A stretch of 37,957 nt of DNA, taken from contig JAGQVA010000003.1 in assembly GCA_020438265.1 (NCBI GenBank), forward strand, positions 1 to 37,957, written 5' to 3'. Under the pieces are notes generated by a model that did no database searches, was not told the origin of the DNA, and worked only from the letters and a program-made list of their open reading frames with translations. The DNA comes from Bacteroidota bacterium. GTDB taxonomy: Bacteria; Bacteroidota; Bacteroidia; J057. Positions 14,811 to 35,498 of this stretch are shown piece by piece. A program made the translations under genes and the position numbers. Positions within the stretch are counted from its first letter, which is position 1. Each line of letters begins with the position of its first letter.

Positions 14811-16544
14811 TTAATTATTTACTCTGTTTAAAAATCGTTTTTTACGACGATAGGGAAATACATCCACAATTTCTCCGTCAATTTGTTTCTGTTGCATATC
14901 TATCCAAAACTTTGGCTCAAAAAGATCTCCATGCAGTTGGTAAAAAACTTCCCGAATATTCTCTTTCCCGATCAGGAAATACTTAAATTCTTCCGGAAAT
15001 ACATCATTATGACTGACAGCAAACCAGGGGGTAGAAGCATAAACCTCATCTGACTCCTCGGGTTCGGGAAGTCTGCGGAACCGGTAATCAGTCAGCAATC
15101 CAATTTCGTCATAGTCATAAAATACCACCCGATTATGACGGGTTACGCCAAAGTTTTTCAAGAGCATATCACCCGGAAATATATTCGCAGCAGCCAATTG
15201 TTTAATGCAATTGCCATACTCTTCTACCGCAGCCTCAATTTCTTCCTCATTCGCCTGATCCAAATATAGATTCAATGGCACCATCTTACGTTCAGTATAC
15301 AGATGATCAATGATGACATTCTCCCCTTCAACTCTCACAATTGACCCGGCAACCTGAAGCAGATGCTCCAGTAATTCTTCTGAAAACCGATCTTTGGGAA
15401 GTGAAAAATATTCAAACTCGTGTGTATCGGCCATTCGCCCTACCCGATCGTGCATGGATACGAGCTTATATTTGGATTTTACCTGCCCTCTACTCATCGA
15501 TTTAGGCGGATCAAATTTATCCTTGATTAATTTGAATACAATATGATAAGAAGGAAGAGTAAATACCGCCATTACCATGCCTCGGATTCCCGGAGCGATA
15601 ATGAATTGATCATTCGATTTGTCCAGGTGCAACAAAAAATGCCGGTAAAGTTCTGTTTTGCCATGTTTATTAAATCCAATGGAATTGTAGATATCGCTAT
15701 AAGGTTTTAGCGGTAAAACCGTCTTAATAAAATGTACCAGTTCTGAGGGAATATCTACATTCACCAGAAAATAGGAACGAGTATAACTGAAAATAATACT
15801 CATATCATTGGGGTCGGTGATCAGGGTATCAGCATAAATTCCATCTTTACTATGAAGAAGTGGAATAATAAAAGGGAAATATTTGCCTCCTATAAAAAAT
15901 CGTCCAACAATATAGGCACCCTTATTTCGGTAAAATACTGACTTTACAATATCCAGACGACTCTCCTCATCAGGCTGGTAAAGGTATAAAATATCCTCCT
16001 GCACTTTCTCAGTAATGTAAAGGACATCCCTTTCCAGGTCTTCATAAGGAATATCAAATTCAAACTTTTTAAGAACCTGCCTCACCAGATCGGCAACTGT
16101 CCTGTTATCTTCCCGATGATATGAATAATACACCGACTCCACATGTTGATATTCCCGTTGGGTATGCTCATCCGCAACAAACATCATATCAATATTTGCT
16201 CCAATGTCCCCCAAAACTTTCCGGCAAACAGAATTCAGAAAAGTCTCAGCTATTTCATATTCAGGCTTTTGTAAAGCCTGACGGGCATAAACCGGTTTTA
16301 TTTCCCGCCAGGTTTCCAGATTATTAAAATGGTCTCCCATAGTCAACTGCACCTGACGGGCAATGCGATAGACCTGTCTTTTGTAAAGATTCAGACGACG
16401 TCGGCTATCAGCCTGCAGGCCATGCCAGTCACGGTTTTGATATCTTATTTTTGCCCGACCGGTAATTTCCCGAAAATCACGCAAAAAGTTGTCAAAACCT
16501 TCGCTAATTATGCTTACTGTTGCTGAGACCAGTTCCTCATTCAT
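14811..16544 (-). CDS. aceK: Isocitrate dehydrogenase kinase/phosphatase
   Basis: The 577-residue length matches E. coli AceK (578). This bifunctional enzyme phosphorylates isocitrate dehydrogenase to divert carbon into the glyoxylate bypass and also reverses the modification. The ATP-binding loop APGIRGMVMAVF lies at 317-328 and the expected lysine in VFKLIKDKF is K338. HDRVGRMADTHEFE and ERKMVPLNLYLDQ are family blocks, and the catalytic core PGDMLLKNFGVTRH plus VVFYDYDEI gives D459, N464 and D477, each two residues beyond the E. coli positions. The end carries VFPEEFKYFL and DVFPYRRKKRF. The glyoxylate genes aceA and aceB are not in this window. A glycosyltransferase follows closely. AceK is best known from Proteobacteria. 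Confidence 0.95.
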   Translation of the reverse strand: MNEELVSATVSIISEGFDNFLRDFREITGRAKIRYQNRDWHGLQADSRRRLNLYKRQVYRIARQVQLTMGDHFNNLETWREIKPVYARQALQKPEYEIAETFLNSVCRKVLGDIGANIDMMFVADEHTQREYQHVESVYYSYHREDNRTVADLVRQVLKKFEFDIPYEDLERDVLYITEKVQEDILYLYQPDEESRLDIVKSVFYRNKGAYIVGRFFIGGKYFPFIIPLLHSKDGIYADTLITDPNDMSIIFSYTRSYFLVNVDIPSELVHFIKTVLPLKPYSDIYNSIGFNKHGKTELYRHFLLHLDKSNDQFIIAPGIRGMVMAVFTLPSYHIVFKLIKDKFDPPKSMSRGQVKSKYKLVSMHDRVGRMADTHEFEYFSLPKDRFSEELLEHLLQVAGSIVRVEGENVIIDHLYTERKMVPLNLYLDQANEEEIEAAVEEYGNCIKQLAAANIFPGDMLLKNFGVTRHNRVVFYDYDEIGLLTDYRFRRLPEPEESDEVYASTPWFAVSHNDVFPEEFKYFLIGKENIREVFYQLHGDLFEPKFWIDMQQKQIDGEIVDVFPYRRKKRFLNRVNN

Positions 16545-26230: not shown

Positions 26231-27973
26231 TTATTTGACAAAGTTTGGAGGATTAGTATCCCAGAATACCTGCTCAGTTACAGATTTCTGCTGAACGTTA
26301 GCATTCAGGTTTACATGTACTGCAGGGTAGATAGCAGATCTGATGAAGTCTCCAACTGAAGTTTCAATTCCAGGCTGAAGGTTAGCAGGTTTACCTGTTC
26401 TTCTGATCATGTTATAAGCCTCAAGTCCGTTACCCCATGCAGCGATGTAGAACTCTTTAGTAATAATATCCAGTTTCTCCCCTTCGTCAGCAGTGGCATC
26501 ATAAGCATCTAAAACGTAAGTAATATAGCTGTTCTTCAGAGAATCCAGTGGATCCAGGAATGCTTGCTTAAGCGTGATATCCTCTCCAGTTGGAGTTCTT
26601 CCAACCACTTTACCGGGAGTCAGGAAGCTCTGATAACCAAATACTTTTTCCATAGACTTATCGATAGCTGATTCCAGGTAAGCTTTTGGATCACCAGAAG
26701 TACCCAAAGTCAGGGCAGCCTCAGCCAACATAAAGTCAGTAAAAGAAGAAAGCAGAATGGGGTTGATACCTTGTCCCAGAGCACCATCAGTACCCTGATT
26801 TTGGGTATAATCAAATGAATTATCATCAAAACTACCACCTGCAGGATAAAGACCATATACAGTTCTGATCTGCCCGTCTGGAGGAATACCAGAACCATTA
26901 CCATGATCACGTCCAAAGTATCCGTCAATAGAAGCAATACAGAAAGCCATATTCGGATCTACTGCAGTGTAGTGAGGAGGAGGTGACTCCAGTTCTCCTG
27001 TAGCAGTGAAAGGAGTTGCTGTATAAATACAATCCCAGATAGTTGCATCTTCATTTGAGAGATCCGGATCCTGACGATAGAAGTAAAAACGAATACGAGG
27101 GTCAACCAGAGCGTCTCCATTCAACTGTTTTTCAGCTCTCAACAACCACATGTAGTAGTTTGACTGATAATCTCCATCTTCGTTTTCATAAGAATTATTA
27201 TAAAATGGATGTCTTGAATTAGGATTGTTTCTCTCTACAGAATACTGAAACTGGAAATCCTCATCTTCAGAATCAATCAGGTCTCCTCCATCAATCAAAG
27301 CGTCCATTTTACTTTTCACAGAAGCATCCCCTACACTCATGTTCAGGTACATTTTCAGCTTAAGTGTTTTTGCAAAAGTAATCCACTTTGAAGGATCTCC
27401 ATCATAAAAAATATCACTGGCAGGACCAGCAGCAACTGTACCATCCAACTGGGCAATAGCATCGTCAATCAAAGCTTCAGCTGCAGCATATACTGATTTA
27501 CCACCATCTCCGTCAGATGCAGGGCTGATCACATCAGTACCCTGAAGCGCCTGAGAATAAGGAACAGCACCAAAGATATCCACCAAAGAAACCATTACAT
27601 AAGCTTTCATCAGCTTGGCTGTTCCAGCGTGGATGTCCAGTCCTCTTGCTTCAGCTACTTCGAGAAGCGTTTCTACATCTGAGAATAACTGAGAGTAAGC
27701 ATTATTCCATAGTCCGTTGTATGATACTGCCTGAAAAGCACTATTATAAGTATAGTTAGTCATCGCAGTCATACGAGAAACATCAGCTGTAAAATTCCAT
27801 GTATTATTATAGAAGTTTCTATAGGTGAGCTGAATGTTATTGTACAGGAAGTCAACCCCCACACCTTCAGGAGTTACTTCGTTGGGGTTATCCAGTAAGT
27901 CCAGGTTAAACATCTGGCAAGATGAAAAACCAGTCAACATCAGAACAACCAATATTTTATTGAATATTTTCAT
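26231..27973 (-). CDS. SusD/RagB-family nutrient-binding lipoprotein
   Basis: This 580-residue protein has a lipoprotein signal ending MLTGFSSC. It shows the SusD-like layout of TPR-type helices: LYNNIQLTYRNFYNNTWNF, GTAKLMKAYVMVSLVDIFGA then VPYSQALQG, DPSKWITFAKTLKLKMYLNM, and a late FMLAEAALTLG. The block YIAAWGNGLEAYNMIRRTGK near the end is typical of the SusD-like_2 subgroup. It forms the lid over the SusC barrel and binds the nutrient on the cell surface. It is encoded 18 bases after SusC. The subgroup is often linked to peptides or unknown ligands as well as glycans, so the substrate should not be assumed to be a sugar. Confidence 0.93.
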   Translation of the reverse strand: MKIFNKILVVLMLTGFSSCQMFNLDLLDNPNEVTPEGVGVDFLYNNIQLTYRNFYNNTWNFTADVSRMTAMTNYTYNSAFQAVSYNGLWNNAYSQLFSDVETLLEVAEARGLDIHAGTAKLMKAYVMVSLVDIFGAVPYSQALQGTDVISPASDGDGGKSVYAAAEALIDDAIAQLDGTVAAGPASDIFYDGDPSKWITFAKTLKLKMYLNMSVGDASVKSKMDALIDGGDLIDSEDEDFQFQYSVERNNPNSRHPFYNNSYENEDGDYQSNYYMWLLRAEKQLNGDALVDPRIRFYFYRQDPDLSNEDATIWDCIYTATPFTATGELESPPPHYTAVDPNMAFCIASIDGYFGRDHGNGSGIPPDGQIRTVYGLYPAGGSFDDNSFDYTQNQGTDGALGQGINPILLSSFTDFMLAEAALTLGTSGDPKAYLESAIDKSMEKVFGYQSFLTPGKVVGRTPTGEDITLKQAFLDPLDSLKNSYITYVLDAYDATADEGEKLDIITKEFYIAAWGNGLEAYNMIRRTGKPANLQPGIETSVGDFIRSAIYPAVHVNLNANVQQKSVTEQVFWDTNPPNFVK

Positions 27974-27991
27974 AATCTTCGTATCTCTTAA

Positions 27992-30900
27992 TTAGAAGGT
28001 TAAGTTAAGACTAACACCGTATTTCTTAGCTGTAGGACCAGTAATATAGTCGAAGCCTCTTCCGTTACCTACCCCAAGGCTCAATACTTCAGGATCGAAG
28101 TTTACACCATAAGGGAAGTTAGGAGCATTGTAGAATAAGTTTTCTCCAGCGATCTGAAGCGAAATTCCACCGAATGGAGTTTTTTCCAAAATGCTTGAAG
28201 GAAGCTCGTAAGCCAAAGAAATCTCACGCATACGAAGTACAGTACCATCAAATACAGCTCCTTCGTCAGCAAAGAAGTAAGCATTGAACATTACATCACC
28301 CAGGTAAGCCTGAATGTTGTTTGGAGATCCATCACTGGCTAATACTCCAGGAGCAACTACAGGGATGAAACGGTCAACTTCAGTGTCTACAGTGTTACCA
28401 CGAGCCATCATAGTGGCAGTAGTGATTGAGTAGATATCTCCACCAGAGATATAAGACCACTGCATGTTGAAAGTAAATCCTTTGAATGACAGTGTGTTAA
28501 TCCAGTTTAACTGATAGTCAGGGTTTGGATCACCAATTACGTCAATATCCTGAGCAGCGAGGTAGTCTCCTGCAGAGTTTACTTTTACTTTTCCTTCTTC
28601 ATTTTTATCAAATGGAAGACCTTTGATTACACCATATCTTTCACCAGGAACAGCAAAGTTTCCAAGGTTGGTATAACCGGCAATAACCACCTGATCAACA
28701 CCTTCATAAATACTAAGTACTTCGTTGATGTTTTTGGTGAAGTTGAAGTCCATGCTCCATCTGAATTCCTTGTTGAAAGGAACGATGTTCAAACCAGCCT
28801 CGATTCCACGGTTACGGATAGAAGCGGCGTTAACAGTAGTATTGGTATAACCAGTAGCAGGGTCAAGATCGAGGTCGATGATCAGATCACGAGAATCTTT
28901 GTTGTACAAAGACACGTCAAATCCGAGTCTGTTCTGTAAGAAACGACCTTCAACACCCAATTCCAATTCCTGATGAACCTCAGGAAGAAGATTACCGTTA
29001 CCCAAACGATCAGATACAAAGTTGGTATTTAAAGTAGTACCACCAGCAGTTACAAAGCTATTGGTATTGGAACCCAGTACGTTTCTGGTCTGATATGGAT
29101 CAGGATATCCAGCAGAAGTACCATAACCAAAGCGCAGTTTGAGGTAGTTAACCACATCATTATTCTGAAGAGCTCCAAAAGCCTCAGTAGGAATGAAAGA
29201 CACACTGGCAGAAGGATAGAAGAAACTTCTGTTTTCTGGTTCCAGTGTAGAAGTCCAGTCATTTCTTGCCTGGAAGTTTACATACAGGAAGCTCTTATAA
29301 CCCAAAGTAGAAGTAATATAAGCTCCAATGTTGTTTTCCTCACGAACTCTTGAGAAAGTGTTATGAGTGATAAAGTTTTGGTGAGTAAGAAGACCAAATA
29401 CAAACTGATTTGAGCTGATAGCAGCATTTTCAGTACGGGTTTCTCTTCTCAGGTTAAGACCTACAACTCCATCCAGTTCAAAATCTTCTCCTAAAGGAAT
29501 ATCATACTGGAAGTTAGCCACGTGGTCAGTGATTCTGTTCAGACGGTCATAAGTAGTCAGTTCACCGTTTGGTACCTGAGTTCCTCCTTTGTTGATAGCT
29601 CTCTGAGAATTCTGATTGTACTGGTCAATACCTATACGATAGTTGAAAGACAACCAGTCAGTGATATCATACAGCAGGTTAATATTACCAAAGAAACGAG
29701 AAATATTCTCTGTATCGAAAGCATTATTCAGTGTCCACAGTGGGTTCTGAATATCACCTCCAGTACGATAATAAACTGCAGAACCATCTACCGGGCTCTG
29801 GTAAGGAAGGTTCAACAAATCGATACTTCTTGGAGTATAAAGCAGGTTTGCAAAAAGTGAAGCACCAGATGGGTTAGATCCAAAACCTACAGAAGCAGGA
29901 GGAGCTTTTCTTTCAGAATCTACATAGTTAAAAGAAGATCTGATTTGCAGACCATTTTCCAGTTTGGTTTGTCCACCTAATGAGAAGTTATGTTTCTTAT
30001 AAGTGTTTTTGTCGTCAGGAATAAATCCGTTGTCAGCCAGATAGCTATAGTTGAAAGAAACAGAACTGTTACTTCCGATAGCTTTGTCAACACCAACAGA
30101 TGTATTACTCAGAACACCTCTCTGGAAGAAGTTCTCAACACTTTGATAAGGTTTGTATTCATATCTGGCACCCATAAACTCAGGGAAGTCATCATTATAA
30201 CGTGCCTGGCTATAAGGGTGAGGAATCGTACCATCTGCATCAACACCATTGCTACCTCTGGTGTCAAAAGAAGGTCCCCAGTTAGAGAAGAACCATCCAA
30301 AGTCTCCAGAGAAACCGTTTCCATAAGTATCCTGATAATCAGGAAGGTTAGCAACCTCGATAAAAGAAACCTGCTGGTTGAAGTTAACCTCAAATTTCTT
30401 TTGAGTATTGCTGCCAGAGTTACCAGTTTTGGTAGTAATCAGGATTACCCCGTTACGTCCGGCTTCACCGTAAAGTACAGTTGCACTCAGACCTTTCAGG
30501 ATAGAAATTTCAGCGATGTTGTTTGGATCGAGATCAAGGAATCGAGAAGAGGCAGTAGCACCTCCTGTTACGAAGTTACGGTCAGTGTTGGTGTCAGTGT
30601 TGAAAGGTACACCATCAATTACGAACAAGGGCTGGTTTGTACCAGTAATAGAAGAATAACCCCGGATAATAACGTTGGTACCACTACCAGCCAGACCTGA
30701 AGTCTGTGTGATATCAACCCCAGGAGCTTTACCGCGCAGGATTCTGGATACGTCGGCCTCAGTTCTTCCACCAATAGCGGCAGAGGAAATGGTCGAAACC
30801 CCATATCCCAACGCTTTTTTCTCCTTACGGATACCCAAACCAGTTACAACGACTTCGTCGAGAGTCAAATCAGATCTTACCAGCGATACTGATAATTTAC

Positions 30901-31159
30901 TCCCGTCACCAATGGATACATCCTGAGAGACGAATCCCACATAGCTAATAACAAGCATGTCATAACCAGAAGGTACAGATAAGGAGAATTCACCTTGCTC
31001 AGAAGTGAAAATACCTGTTGTAGTTCCCTTAACGAGAACACTGGCACCAACCAGAGGATTGCCGTCTGGATCGGACACCGTTCCTGATACATTCCGCTGC
31101 GCCCAAACGGCGGATGCGGATAGCAGGAATGCCGCAAACAAGCATAGAAGTTTTTTCAT
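27992..31159 (-). CDS. SusC/RagA-family TonB-dependent outer-membrane transporter
   Basis: This 1055-residue protein has a signal peptide (to residue 20, SASAVWA). A carboxypeptidase regulatory-like domain follows (about 22-95, VSGTVSDPDGNPLVGASVLV). The TonB-box-like DEVVVTGLG is at 101-109. The plug domain (about 115-250) has ILRGKAPGVDITQTSG, NVIIRGYSSITGTNQPLFVI and GRNGVILITTKTG. The rest is a 22-stranded barrel ending in KYGVSLNLTF with a terminal phenylalanine, the outer-membrane assembly signal. It imports the ligand captured by the SusD partner using TonB energy. No hydrolase, regulator or anti-sigma gene adjoins the operon, so the substrate is unknown. Start and end fit the family. 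Confidence 0.96.
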   Translation of the reverse strand: MKKLLCLFAAFLLSASAVWAQRNVSGTVSDPDGNPLVGASVLVKGTTTGIFTSEQGEFSLSVPSGYDMLVISYVGFVSQDVSIGDGSKLSVSLVRSDLTLDEVVVTGLGIRKEKKALGYGVSTISSAAIGGRTEADVSRILRGKAPGVDITQTSGLAGSGTNVIIRGYSSITGTNQPLFVIDGVPFNTDTNTDRNFVTGGATASSRFLDLDPNNIAEISILKGLSATVLYGEAGRNGVILITTKTGNSGSNTQKKFEVNFNQQVSFIEVANLPDYQDTYGNGFSGDFGWFFSNWGPSFDTRGSNGVDADGTIPHPYSQARYNDDFPEFMGARYEYKPYQSVENFFQRGVLSNTSVGVDKAIGSNSSVSFNYSYLADNGFIPDDKNTYKKHNFSLGGQTKLENGLQIRSSFNYVDSERKAPPASVGFGSNPSGASLFANLLYTPRSIDLLNLPYQSPVDGSAVYYRTGGDIQNPLWTLNNAFDTENISRFFGNINLLYDITDWLSFNYRIGIDQYNQNSQRAINKGGTQVPNGELTTYDRLNRITDHVANFQYDIPLGEDFELDGVVGLNLRRETRTENAAISSNQFVFGLLTHQNFITHNTFSRVREENNIGAYITSTLGYKSFLYVNFQARNDWTSTLEPENRSFFYPSASVSFIPTEAFGALQNNDVVNYLKLRFGYGTSAGYPDPYQTRNVLGSNTNSFVTAGGTTLNTNFVSDRLGNGNLLPEVHQELELGVEGRFLQNRLGFDVSLYNKDSRDLIIDLDLDPATGYTNTTVNAASIRNRGIEAGLNIVPFNKEFRWSMDFNFTKNINEVLSIYEGVDQVVIAGYTNLGNFAVPGERYGVIKGLPFDKNEEGKVKVNSAGDYLAAQDIDVIGDPNPDYQLNWINTLSFKGFTFNMQWSYISGGDIYSITTATMMARGNTVDTEVDRFIPVVAPGVLASDGSPNNIQAYLGDVMFNAYFFADEGAVFDGTVLRMREISLAYELPSSILEKTPFGGISLQIAGENLFYNAPNFPYGVNFDPEVLSLGVGNGRGFDYITGPTAKKYGVSLNLTF

Positions 31160-31564: not shown

Positions 31565-32125
31565 GTGAAGTTTTTCATCTATTGTTTATTCATCATAATT
31601 ATCTGTGCTACCCTTATTGGCGTAGCCGTTTACACGAAAACGTCAGAATCGGAAGAGGCGTTGTCTGGGTGTATAGAACTTTCTGAAAAAAATTACGTAA
31701 AAGTGCCCGAATTGTGGCCAGCCTCTGATTTTCAAAAGATTAGCTCACCCTTTGGCATGCGACTCCACCCGGTGCTGAGAAAAAGAAGAATGCATTGGGG
31801 AGTCGATTTTCCTCTTCCCGAAGGAACGCATATCAGAGCCACTGCTCCAGGCAAAGTCAAAAAGACTGCCGAGCAGGATGGAACGAGTTCGTATGGAATT
31901 TATGTCCAGATTGAACACGACTCTATCTACACAACTCTTTATGCCCATCTTTCTGAAGTTTTCGTTACGTCCGACCAATGGGTACAGATTGGTGATACCA
32001 TCGGACTTTCCGGAAATACTGGTTTGACCAATGGGCCACACCTCCATTATGAAGTATTCGAGAATGGAAAACGAGTAAATCCTCACAAATTTTTACCCAT
32101 TGAACAGATTGTCGAAGGCTTATGA
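31565..32125 (+). CDS. M23 (LytM-type) peptidoglycan endopeptidase
   Basis: This 186-residue protein is read from a GTG start (31565). It has one N-terminal membrane helix or signal anchor (FIYCLFIIIICATLIGVAVY, residues 3-22) and a complete M23 domain (about 58-175). Zinc ligands are H77 and D81 in RMHWGVDF, and H161 in GPHLHYE. H128 in YAHLS and H159 are the expected catalytic partners. It should cut peptide cross-links in peptidoglycan from the periplasmic side. The stop overlaps the next gene in ATGA. Compared with typical M23 proteins it is short and lacks coiled-coil or LysM parts, but the next protein supplies a LysM. The four-gene operon suggests wall remodelling tied to the motor downstream. 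Confidence 0.88.
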   Translation: MKFFIYCLFIIIICATLIGVAVYTKTSESEEALSGCIELSEKNYVKVPELWPASDFQKISSPFGMRLHPVLRKRRMHWGVDFPLPEGTHIRATAPGKVKKTAEQDGTSSYGIYVQIEHDSIYTTLYAHLSEVFVTSDQWVQIGDTIGLSGNTGLTNGPHLHYEVFENGKRVNPHKFLPIEQIVEGL

Positions 32126-32922
32126 AAACAATTATTCTTTCTCTGATTTTTACTTTTATTTCTTTCTCTAATCCTCACCTGGAAGCTACCAGATTACTGG
32201 GCTTGATGCACCAAAACCTCAACGGAATTAAAGCACACAGTTACCGGTTGAATCTGGCTGAAAGGAGAATTGACAATCAATATCATCAAGGAGAATTATT
32301 GATTTCAGTACAAAACCAACCGCTAAAAATCAGAGCGGAGGTAATCGGTCCGGCAGAAGGTCCCCTGGTAGAATACGATGCTGCTGCTGATAAAACCAAT
32401 GCAGTTATTACTCCCAGGAAATGGTTGCCTGCGGTAAAGTTCAAACAGGATGTTAACAGTAAAATGGTACGTCGGGGACATTACTCGATTCACGAAACAA
32501 CCTTTAATCACTTCGATTTTCTCATTCAGAAAATGGAGACCCGGCTTCTGCAAAATGGAGACTCCCATCACGGAATCAAATATCATGGAATCACCAGCGA
32601 AGAAGGAGTTTCGTGTCATAAAATAGAACTCATTGATGCACAATATCAAATACAAAACTATCAGATCAACCGGGAAGAAAACCTGATCGATCTGGCACAA
32701 AATAAATGGATTCATCCTTATAAAATCCTGGAATTAAACCCGCAATTGTCCTCTTACGACGAAATCCGGACAGGACAACGGATTAAAATTCCCACTTCCT
32801 ACGCCAAAAGATGTGTCTTATACATTGACACGCAGGATTACTTACCCAGGCGCCTCGAAGTGTATGATGAATTGGGATGGTTTGAAAAATATTCTTTTCG
32901 GGATATCAGCATTCGTCGCTAG
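32122..32922 (+). CDS. DUF1571-like protein with an embedded LysM domain
   Basis: This 266-residue protein has a signal peptide (MKTIILSLIFTFISFS). The body resembles DUF1571, a LolA-like curved sheet: residues 40-75 with YRLNLAERRIDNQYHQGELL, a central HHGIKYHGITSEEGVSCHKI, and the closing YLPRRLEVYDELGWFEKYSF. Residues 180-226 form a LysM domain (YQINREENLIDLAQNKW, YKILELNPQLS, GQRIKIP) inserted between two strands of the body. LysM binds the glycan chains of peptidoglycan. The gene overlaps the M23 peptidase by four bases and is 44 bases before the motor genes. It is probably a periplasmic factor acting at the wall with the peptidase. Confidence 0.75.
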   Translation: MKTIILSLIFTFISFSNPHLEATRLLGLMHQNLNGIKAHSYRLNLAERRIDNQYHQGELLISVQNQPLKIRAEVIGPAEGPLVEYDAAADKTNAVITPRKWLPAVKFKQDVNSKMVRRGHYSIHETTFNHFDFLIQKMETRLLQNGDSHHGIKYHGITSEEGVSCHKIELIDAQYQIQNYQINREENLIDLAQNKWIHPYKILELNPQLSSYDEIRTGQRIKIPTSYAKRCVLYIDTQDYLPRRLEVYDELGWFEKYSFRDISIRR

Positions 32923-32966
32923 ACCTATTCTGATACCCTATTACTCAGCCTTAACTATCAATAACT

Positions 32967-34316
32967 ATGGATTTAATTTTTATCATTGAACTGGCCATTG
33001 TGGCCGTGATTGTTGTTATCCAGTTTGTTACCTTTTTCAAAAACAACTCAGCAATCCGAACATTGGGAGAAATCTTTCCGGATTCTCAAAAACTTCAAAC
33101 CAAACAGGTAACCTTACCTGCTGAAAAAAAAGAAGGAGAGACAACTTCAGAAAATCAGGAAGTCAGTCTGATTGTAGATAATACCCAATTCAACGTTACT
33201 TTCAGGGAAATCATTAAGACCATTAATATTTACCTGGCCAGACAAAAAGGAGATGCTTCTGAAGATACCATTAAAGAATTGGCAGAAGCAAAGGTCACTT
33301 CCCACGAAAAAGCCATCGAATCGAATATTGCGATGCCTTTATACATAGGTCTGCTTTGTACTTTCGCCGGAGTTATTATCGGATTGGTGCGGATTGCTAC
33401 GGATGGAGTGAGCGATTATGCGATTCAGTCTTTCATTGGTGGGGTATTAATTGGAATGATTGGTAGTGCCAATGGATTAGCGTTGACAGTGAGAAGTAAT
33501 TTTATGTTTAAAGAGAAGAAAAAGGTGCGGGATCAGGGACAATATGACTTTTTTAACTTCTTACGTGCTCATTTTCTTCCTGAAGGATTTGCTAAAAAAT
33601 CAGCTGGTTTCAATACCTCTCATGCAAAAGAAAATCTTGAAATTTTCCATGAGGGATTTGTCAAATATCAGCAACACATGAATCTCTCTCTGTCAGAAAC
33701 GTTGCAATTATTCTCCGAACTCAAAGGTGTATTTGCACAAATCAAAAGTATGGAGATGGGTCTCAAAGGAATCAATCAATATCTCCATACCAATGAAAAT
33801 ATAGTTATCAAACAGGTCGCCAGCATTGAGCAGTTTAATAAACGAGCAGAACTCATTTCCAGTAAACTCAACGAACAGTACGCCAACGTCGAAAAACAAC
33901 TGGCTTCATTAGCCGCAGAAAATATCAAAGCGCTGGACCGAAAAACTCAATTGGCTTATTCTTCTATGAATGGCAACGGGAACGGATATCACCACGGAAA
34001 CGGAAATTCTCTTGCTTATGCAGAAGCCATCGACATGGACTTAAGTCATCTCAGAGATAAAATCAAGGGAATAGAAGTCAACGGACTGGAAATCAACCAA
34101 AAACTGATCAAAGAGATCAACGAGTCCAACCAGACCAATCAAAAAACCAGTTCTCAGATTTCTCTGCTGAATAATCAGTTGGCAAAAATTCTGGAGCATC
34201 AGGAAGCCAATTATCTCAGATCGAAGGAATTCAGATTCTTTATCTGGACAGGAGTTACGGCTTTTCTGGCAGGAATTTCAGGAGCAATTATTTACGTCAT
34301 TAACACTTTCTTATAA
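32967..34316 (+). CDS. MotA/TolQ/ExbB-like channel with long tail (ZorA-like)
   Basis: This 449-residue protein starts with a membrane helix (about 3-24). Two core helices of the MotA/ExbB type follow: AMPLYIGLLCTFAGVIIGLV (122-141) and FIGGVLIGMIGSANGLALTV (156-175). Then comes a long cytoplasmic helical tail (about 180-425), with a Gly/Asn/His-rich break (MNGNGNGYHHGNGNS). It ends in a fourth hydrophobic segment, FFIWTGVTAFLAGISGAIIY (about 427-446). A proton- or sodium-driven rotary channel with a tail is the design of ZorA. The next gene overlaps by one base and encodes the MotB-like partner. A terminal membrane helix would bring the tail back to the membrane, unlike the free tail described for ZorA. 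GldL is excluded by size and fold. Confidence 0.78.
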   Translation: MDLIFIIELAIVAVIVVIQFVTFFKNNSAIRTLGEIFPDSQKLQTKQVTLPAEKKEGETTSENQEVSLIVDNTQFNVTFREIIKTINIYLARQKGDASEDTIKELAEAKVTSHEKAIESNIAMPLYIGLLCTFAGVIIGLVRIATDGVSDYAIQSFIGGVLIGMIGSANGLALTVRSNFMFKEKKKVRDQGQYDFFNFLRAHFLPEGFAKKSAGFNTSHAKENLEIFHEGFVKYQQHMNLSLSETLQLFSELKGVFAQIKSMEMGLKGINQYLHTNENIVIKQVASIEQFNKRAELISSKLNEQYANVEKQLASLAAENIKALDRKTQLAYSSMNGNGNGYHHGNGNSLAYAEAIDMDLSHLRDKIKGIEVNGLEINQKLIKEINESNQTNQKTSSQISLLNNQLAKILEHQEANYLRSKEFRFFIWTGVTAFLAGISGAIIYVINTFL

Positions 34317-35176
34317 TGCGCTCGGAAAACGGAAAATTATTTTGGGTGAGTTATGCAGATTTGATGACTGCCCTGTTTATCATCGCTTTGGCTTTGTTTG
34401 TCTTAAGCTATAAGATGTTCAATATCAAACAAATAGACCTATCCAAAGCCGAAGACGAATTAAAGCTGCGATCCCTGAGTCTTGTTAATGCAGAAGACGC
34501 GCTCAAACTCAGAGAGGAAGAAATCGAGAAGCAAAATCTGGCTTATCTGGAATTACAACAACGGTTAAGTCAGGGAGAACAAATGGCCAGTTCATTGATT
34601 CAGGATCTGAATAGCGAGCGGGACAGACTGGTACGTTTGGAAGATCAGCTAAAAAAGGAAAGAGGTCGTCTGGTCGTAATGGAGGAAGAATACAAAAAAC
34701 TCCAGGAAATTCAGAAAGCCATAGAAAATCTCGATTCGCGGTATTTTGTTTATCAGCCTGAATTTAAAAGACACGTTTTAAGGGGTCTGGTACAATTTCC
34801 AAAAGGAGAAAGTGAAATTCCTACCCCTTATCATCCGATGTTATATCAGGCTGGAAATGCACTTGCAAGCCTGATTAATCGCCTCGAACCAGATGATAAT
34901 ATCAAATATATGCTGATTATCGAAGGAATGGCTTCCCGCGATGCATACAGCAGAAATTATGAACTGAGTTATGAAAGGGCCCTTTCCCTGGTAAGGCTTT
35001 GGGAGGAAAAAGGGATCACTTTTGACCATGATCGCTTTGAGGTGATGATTGCCGGTAGCGGAGAAGGCGGAATTGGTCGCGACCGCACCAATGAAAAAAG
35101 AAACCAACGTTTTTTGATTCAGATTATTCCCAAGATTGGTGAGCTCAACGCCATTGAGTTTGACTACGGGAAATAA
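34316..35176 (+). CDS. MotB/OmpA-like motor partner (ZorB-like)
   Basis: This 286-residue protein has a single N-terminal membrane helix with the MotB-type motif FWVSYADLMTALF. D15 matches the ion-carrying aspartate of MotB (YADFMT). About residues 40-145 form a charged coiled coil. Residues about 155-275 form an OmpA-like peptidoglycan-binding domain with YMLIIEGMASRDAYSRNYEL, SYERALSLVRLWEEKGI and KRNQRFLIQI. It would anchor the ion channel encoded by the previous gene to the cell wall. The stop/start overlap (TAATG) indicates stoichiometric production. In Zorya systems ZorC/D or ZorE follow here; instead a terminator and a hairpin element follow. A function in defence is thus not supported by the context. 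Confidence 0.82.
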   Translation: MRSENGKLFWVSYADLMTALFIIALALFVLSYKMFNIKQIDLSKAEDELKLRSLSLVNAEDALKLREEEIEKQNLAYLELQQRLSQGEQMASSLIQDLNSERDRLVRLEDQLKKERGRLVVMEEEYKKLQEIQKAIENLDSRYFVYQPEFKRHVLRGLVQFPKGESEIPTPYHPMLYQAGNALASLINRLEPDDNIKYMLIIEGMASRDAYSRNYELSYERALSLVRLWEEKGITFDHDRFEVMIAGSGEGGIGRDRTNEKRNQRFLIQIIPKIGELNAIEFDYGK

Positions 35177-35207
35177 TCAAACTTTCCTAATATTTAATCT
35201 TTGTCTG

Positions 35208-35246
35208 TCCTCCTCTTGGGTGTAATGCCTGGGGGAGGATTTTTTT
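35208..35246 (+). terminator. Terminator of the motor operon
   Basis: TCCTCC (35208-35213) pairs with GGAGGA (35234-35239) over a 20-base loop and is followed by seven T. It stands 32 bases after the stop of the ZorB-like gene and directly abuts the left terminal repeat of the 35247-35498 element. Confidence 0.75.
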
Positions 35247-35498
35247 GTAATGGGGCGATTTTTGCGCTGTATAGGAAAGCAATTGTTTTACTAACTGGAG
35301 GCCCCCGATCGCTTTCGCGTCGGGGGTGACAAAGCATACGCTTTGTGGGTACACGCCGAACATTTCGGCGTGTTTTTAAACAGCCAATGGCTGGACGCAA
35401 TGCGTCTTCCCCAGCTTGACTGGGGACCTCCTGAGTGGTAAAAAGGATTATTAATTTCTAATTTGCTTCCCCAAGTGGCGCAAAAATCGCCCCATTAC
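35247..35498. repeat. 252-base element: 21-bp inverted ends around six hairpins
   Basis: The 21-base ends (35247-35267 and 35478-35498) are exact inverted repeats containing GGGGCGATTTTTGCGC, and the pairing goes on imperfectly inwards. GGAGG (35297-35301) and CCTCC (35427-35431) can close an inner junction. Inside lie six hairpins in a row: CCCCCGA/TCGGGGG (35302-35326, with CGC/GCG inside), ACAAAGC/GCTTTGT (35329-35346), ACACGCCGAA/TTCGGCGTGT (35351-35373), CAGCC/GGCTG (35381-35393), GACGC/GCGTC (35394-35406), and TCCCCAG/CTGGGGA (35408-35426). The fourth and fifth touch and share loop AAT. There is no open reading frame for a transposase and no target duplication. The right end touches the stop codon of the next gene. 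Confidence 0.88.

What the first reader, a model, noticed from the sequence alone, without database searches (positions are those of the whole stretch)
31565..35176. Stand-alone ZorAB-like motor in an operon with an M23 peptidase and a LysM protein
Four plus-strand genes are packed together (overlap of 4, gap of 44, overlap of 1). The last two encode a MotA/ExbB-like channel with a long helical tail and a MotB/OmpA partner with the ion-carrying aspartate motif SYADLMT. This is the core of ZorA/ZorB from Zorya phage defence, yet no ZorC, ZorD or ZorE follows: the next gene is an opposite-strand glycoside hydrolase. In front are a zinc peptidase that cuts peptidoglycan and a protein with a LysM glycan-binding domain. 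I infer an ion-driven motor that senses or remodels the cell wall. The seen parts are the motifs and layout; the joint function is inference.
Basis: partly seen in the sequence, partly recalled or inferred. Interest (0 to 1): 0.8.

Follow-up and report, generated by a model that had tools for sequence, protein, structure and literature searches.

The report
Membrane motor beside cell-wall proteins
A small gene cluster in an environmental Bacteroidota bacterium encodes an ion-driven membrane motor related to the core of the Zorya anti-phage system, here without the Zorya partner genes and joined instead to a wall-gripping sensor-like protein and a wall-cutting enzyme, so it may be a cell-envelope motor rather than a phage-defence machine.

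Summary
The four genes are real and at the stated places. A and B form a ZorA/ZorB-superfamily channel pair: B matches ZorB profiles (E 2e-10), relatives of A match ZorA2 profiles (to 4e-9), and the best solved-structure match of the A model is ZorA. The ion-carrying Asp of B and the Thr/Ser ring of A are invariant. ZorC was not found in any of 13 family genomes, and no ZorC/D/E-like gene lies beside the pair. The pair is a conserved two-gene unit in 7 of 10 genera of this Bacteroidia family, usually alone. Three genera carry a second copy wired to gene 2; two of these also have the M23 peptidase. Gene 2 is not a plain LysM protein but DUF1571, a RseB/LolA-like half-barrel with a LysM inserted, found (mostly alone) in 38% of Bacteroidia genomes sampled. 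Two features separate the pair from described ZorAB: the A tail ends in a conserved fourth membrane helix, so it must return to the membrane, and B's OmpA domain has GMAS where the wall-binding motif is usually GHTD. Most likely an ion-driven envelope motor coupled to wall sensing and cutting; the joint function is inferred. New variant of a known kind. Anti-phage use is not excluded.

The parts
31565..32125 (+). M23-family peptidase, N-terminal membrane helix or signal (residues 4-22) followed by a full M23 domain with the metal/catalytic residues H77, D81, H128, H159, H161
   Evidence: PF01551 4e-29; residues kept in the G010 copy
32122..32922 (+). DUF1571 protein with RseB/LolA-like half-barrel fold and a LysM domain (about residues 177-225) inserted between strands; hydrophobic N-terminus, probable signal peptide (not tested by a dedicated tool)
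   Evidence: AlphaFold pLDDT 91.8; Foldseek: RseB, LolA, LprG
32967..34316 (+). A subunit: ZorA/TolQ/ExbB-like channel, membrane helices 3-21, 123-141, 157-175; beta hairpin and two helices between helices 1 and 2; helical tail 180-420; fourth membrane helix 424-442
34316..35176 (+). B subunit: ZorB/MotB-like, membrane helix 11-29 with ion-carrying Asp15, long coiled-coil-like stretch (about 38-145), C-terminal OmpA-like domain (about 150-273) with EGMAS...NYELSYERA
35203..35240 (+). terminator-like hairpin and T-run just after B, closing the operon; a comparable hairpin with T-run follows B in the G010 copy
   Evidence: the scan alone is not above its shuffled background; the case rests on position in both copies

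Best explanation
The operon encodes an ion-driven inner-membrane motor of the ZorA/ZorB superfamily (presumably five A and two B) that has been specialised for the cell envelope. Ions flow past Asp15 of B and the Thr132/Ser167 ring of A and turn or shift A against B. B reaches through the periplasm on a long coiled coil and holds the wall with its OmpA-like domain. The tail of A loops back to the membrane through a fourth membrane helix, so the machine is unlikely to hand a signal to a DNA-attacking effector as Zorya does. The DUF1571-LysM protein sits in the periplasm, grips glycan strands with LysM, and with its RseB/LolA-like half-barrel senses or carries a lipid or other envelope ligand. 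The M23 peptidase cuts cross-links where motor and sensor work. Shown: gene layout, folds and motifs, recurrence of the linkage in three genera, no ZorC found by profile. Inferred: 5:2 assembly, rotation, direction of coupling, and the wall-remodelling function.
For: B matches ZorB1 2e-10 and solved ZorB chains 8qyd and 8vvn; relatives of A match ZorA2 to 3.9e-9 and the A model's top PDB hit is ZorA, ahead of ExbB/TolQ. Confident A core with a beta hairpin between helices 1 and 2, a trait that PMC12505986 reports as distinguishing Zorya-type proteins. Invariant channel residues. LysM-A-B order kept in G000, G010 and G002, M23 upstream in G000 and G010, flanks not kept. Gene 2 fold and LysM insertion. 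M23 active-site residues intact. ZorC not found in any of 13 family genomes with two models.
Against: No experiment links the genes. Most copies of the pair in the family stand without LysM or M23, so these partners are not needed for the motor. G002 lacks M23 next to LysM-A-B and has its best M23 relative unlinked. The OmpA domain scores just under Pfam's cut-off and has GMAS where wall-binding domains usually have GHTD, so wall binding is not certain. The A tail and fourth helix are modelled with low confidence (pLDDT about 40-70). The control for the ZorC search was weak (one marginal hit in 247 genomes).
Confidence: 0.5

Rival explanations
1. The motor is real but its pairing with M23 and DUF1571-LysM is only co-transcription of separate envelope genes, with no joint mechanism.
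For: Solitary AB copies and solitary DUF1571-LysM copies are common; the M23 link is in only two genera; the tree neither recovers nor rejects one clade for the linked copies (p-AU 0.51).
Against: The same order is kept in three genera at 41-67% identity while flanks changed, with overlaps of 1-4 bases or short gaps.
Confidence: 0.25
2. It is an unrecognised defence system: the motor senses phage damage to the wall as ZorAB does, and the effector is envelope-based (the M23 peptidase lysing or altering the infected cell) instead of the DNA-attacking ZorC/D/E.
For: Sequence and fold closest to ZorA/ZorB; Zorya is thought to sense wall damage through ZorB (PMC11890865); a Zorya type with other partners, ZorF/ZorG, is known (PMC8565338).
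Against: The pair is kept in most genera of the family and no defence-type neighbours recur in the loci read, unlike the patchy spread typical of defence genes; the DUF1571-LysM gene is a widespread, mostly solitary gene; the A tail returns to the membrane.
Confidence: 0.15
3. It is a force transducer for another envelope task, such as outer-membrane stability (Tol-like), surface transport or gliding, with the wall proteins only clearing a path.
For: Same channel superfamily as TolQ/ExbB; B has a long periplasmic stalk.
Against: No TolA/TonB-like or GldM-like partner beside it; no Tol, Ton or gliding model above cut-off on A or B.
Confidence: 0.1

Closest known systems
ZorA/ZorB of Zorya types I-III
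   Same: Channel core, ion-carrying Asp in an FWxSYADLMTA motif, beta hairpin plus helices between membrane helices 1 and 2, long helical tail on A, OmpA-like domain on B
   Different: No ZorC found in the genome or beside it, no ZorD/E/F/G-like neighbour; A has a fourth, C-terminal membrane helix; B has GMAS instead of GHTD in the OmpA domain and a long coiled-coil-like linker
Bacteroidia operon with a tubulin-like GTPase, an ASKHA ATPase and a ZorA/ZorB-like pair (compare FtsZl-1 of Makarova and Koonin 2010, PMC2875224)
   Same: Closest relatives of A and B outside the family's own short type
   Different: That operon has a tubulin-like GTPase, a ~1140-aa actin-like ATPase and a ~380-aa membrane protein; none is beside the window pair, and Tubulin_2 was not found in G000. 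Its A proteins mostly lack the fourth membrane helix
TolQR / ExbBD / MotAB
   Same: Same ion-channel superfamily and probable 5:2 build
   Different: No Tol, Ton, Mot or Gld model reaches its cut-off; long tail on A; OmpA domain on B, unlike TolR/ExbD
DUF1571 (PF07608) with LysM; RseB/LolA/LprG fold
   Same: Gene 2 belongs to DUF1571 and has the half-barrel fold with LysM inserted
   Different: The operon-linked versions lack the C-terminal extension and the QHH motif usual in the solitary ones

Membership tests
ZorA/ZorB channel superfamily | B with N-terminal membrane helix carrying the ion-binding Asp, plus OmpA-like domain | tested here: met
   ZorB1 2e-10; 8qyd and 8vvn ZorB; Asp15 invariant in 20 pairs; OmpA match just below Pfam cut-off
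ZorA/ZorB channel superfamily | A with ZorA-type core (beta hairpin and two helices between membrane helices 1 and 2) and polar ring | tested here: met
   model core pLDDT mostly 80-93 with strands 45-50 and 64-69; top Foldseek hit ZorA, but only E 1.6e-3; T132, S167, T174 invariant; ZorA2 profile matches in 7 of 10 relatives, none for the window A itself
Zorya defence system | ZorC partner | tested here: not met
   0 of 13 family genomes with PF15611 and with ZorC1 PDLC00615; positive control weak
Zorya defence system | ZorD, ZorE, ZorF or ZorG beside AB | tested here: not met
   none beside the pair in the window, and no recurring neighbour among the family loci; not searched genome-wide
Zorya defence system | A tail ending free in the cytoplasm (three membrane helices) | tested here: not met
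   hydrophobic fourth helix at the C-terminus in nine family A proteins by hydropathy and in two more by sequence; topology itself not shown
Zorya defence system | anti-phage activity | not testable with these tools
   needs a phage assay
Flagellar MotAB | match to MotA/MotB models and MotA fold | tested here: not met
   no Mot model over its cut-off; MotA chains rank far below ZorA/ExbB/TolQ
Gliding GldLM, TolQR, ExbBD | match to the family models | tested here: not met
   none among NCBIfam or Pfam hits over cut-off; TolQ only weakly by profile, E 0.004
Tubulin-like/ASKHA operon (FtsZl-1-like) | tubulin-like GTPase with the AB pair | tested here: not met
   not beside the pair; Tubulin_2 not found in G000, though that model is weak on the Bacteroidia versions
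M23 peptidase | HxxxD and HxH metal ligands | tested here: met
   H77, D81, H159, H161 present and kept in G010
DUF1571 with LysM | DUF1571 profile with inserted LysM | tested here: met
   31 of 31 homologues match DUF1571, 28 match LysM; the window protein matches both

The most novel reading that the evidence does not exclude
A new class of ion-driven envelope machine in which a ZorAB-type rotary motor, with its tail looped back to the membrane, directly drives or gates a wall endopeptidase through a lipid- or stress-sensing LysM half-barrel protein, using membrane energy to remodel the wall.
Probability: 0.2. Interest if true: 0.85.

Novelty: new variant of a known kind. Interest (0 to 1): 0.6.

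Why it matters
Zorya cores are known as phage sensors; a relative kept across most genera of one family without the Zorya partners, and in some genera wired to wall proteins, would show that the ZorA/ZorB motor also serves ordinary envelope biology and would help explain where Zorya came from. A motor coupled to a wall-cutting enzyme would make testable how membrane energy reaches the cell wall. The looped-back tail is a concrete structural difference that topology tests or cryo-EM could settle.

Tried and rejected
Filing as Zorya: rejected, ZorC and partner genes not found. Filing as part of the tubulin-like/ASKHA operon: rejected, those genes are not beside the pair and Tubulin_2 was not found in G000. 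Flagellar, Tol/Ton or gliding pair: no model over cut-off. DUF1571 literature: no paper in the held library has the term. Papers on stand-alone ZorAB with wall enzymes: none found in the held library. The Nature Zorya paper PMC11946911 is not held. A Bacteroidota-type promoter before the M23 gene was looked for and no convincing one found. One clade for the linked AB copies: not resolved.

Full report
Observation. Profiles name them M23 peptidase, DUF1571 with LysM, a MotA/ExbB-like channel (weak on its own) and a MotB/OmpA-like partner. A terminator-like hairpin follows B and another follows B in the G010 copy, so the operon most likely ends there. The next gene is an opposite-strand secreted protein with DUF5060.

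What A and B are. B matches ZorB1 profiles at 2e-10, and the profile of its relatives finds the solved ZorB chains 8qyd and 8vvn. The window A matches no PADLOC model itself, but seven of ten aligned relatives match ZorA2, best 3.9e-9. The AlphaFold core of A is confident and has a beta hairpin and two helices between membrane helices 1 and 2, the trait PMC12505986 gives for Zorya-type proteins; its best PDB match is ZorA (E 1.6e-3), then ExbB and TolQ. Thr132, Ser167 and Thr174 of A and Asp15 of B are invariant, as expected of a working ion channel (compare PMC11890865). No flagellar, Tol/Ton or gliding model reaches its cut-off.

How they differ from Zorya. All eleven family A proteins of this type end in a hydrophobic fourth helix (nine by hydropathy, two more by sequence); the helical tail must therefore return to the membrane. 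B has a long coiled-coil-like linker and, in its OmpA domain, GMAS in place of GHTD, with the Arg of NYELSYERA kept. ZorC was not found in any of 13 family genomes with two models; a wider control gave one marginal hit in 247 genomes, so sensitivity is only partly shown.

Distribution. In the family, A-B of this type occurs in 8 of 13 genomes and 7 of 10 genera; a ninth genome, G001, has the longer, tail-heavy type in another operon. Most copies are a two-gene unit with no recurring direct neighbour. G000, G002 and G010 each carry two pairs: one solitary and one linked to DUF1571-LysM. In G010 the full M23-LysM-A-B order is kept. In G002 the contig with A-B begins with the C-terminal part of a DUF1571-LysM gene and another contig ends within such a gene, without M23 upstream; that the two contigs adjoin is inference. 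Its best M23 relative lies elsewhere. The flanks of the window and G010 copies are unrelated apart from one secreted PKD-type protein at another place. The tree neither recovers nor rejects the linked copies as one clade (p-AU 0.51), so one capture or several are both possible.

Gene 2. DUF1571-LysM occurs in 151 of 395 Bacteroidia genomes; in the solitary loci read, neither M23 nor A-B stands directly beside it. All 31 aligned homologues match DUF1571 and 28 match LysM. The model is confident (pLDDT 91.8) and resembles RseB, LolA and LprG, with the LysM inserted between strands; those folds bind lipids or lipoproteins or sense envelope stress (established knowledge of these families). The linked versions lack the usual C-terminal extension and the QHH motif.

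M23. The metal and catalytic residues are intact and kept in G010. M23 relatives exist in every family genome, so the linked one may be a duplicate.

Mechanism. Most likely an ion-driven motor anchored to the wall by B, with DUF1571-LysM as a wall-gripping sensor or carrier and M23 as the cutter; the looped tail argues against a Zorya-style hand-off to a DNA effector. Motor identity and linkage rest on sequence and fold; assembly, direction of coupling and function are inferred. The main rivals are co-transcription without a joint mechanism, an unrecognised defence system with an envelope effector, and a force transducer for another envelope task.

Verdict. New variant of a known kind; interest 0.6.

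Noticed in passing
L090, L093-L096, L098, L099 (other Bacteroidia families): A recurring operon joins a tubulin-like GTPase, a ~1140-aa protein with actin-like (ASKHA) ATPase motifs read by eye, a ~380-aa membrane protein and a ZorA/ZorB-like pair; tubulin matches in Pfam are weak and PADLOC matches only the ZorA/ZorB pair.
   Followed up: partly
window 35247-35498: A 252-bp element with 36-nt inverted ends (83% complementary) between B and the DUF5060 gene; parts of it recur in about 40 matches across the genome, so it looks like a repetitive or mobile element.
   Followed up: partly
L091 7045-10227: Two tandem B-like genes follow one A-like gene in G228.
   Followed up: no
L097 8682-9998: An A-like protein in the tubulin-type operon also ends in a C-terminal membrane helix, so this trait may have arisen more than once.
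   Followed up: no
L022 11393-12394; L017 6667-7677; L024 19410-20000: Homologous ~335-aa proteins (57-84% identical) lie within about 10 kb of solitary A-B pairs in three genera; possible loose link or chance.
   Followed up: no
window 26231-31159: A SusC/SusD-like pair stands divergently just upstream of the operon.
   Followed up: no
window 14811-16544: A full-length isocitrate dehydrogenase kinase/phosphatase (AceK) gene, E 2e-117, in this Bacteroidota genome.
   Followed up: no
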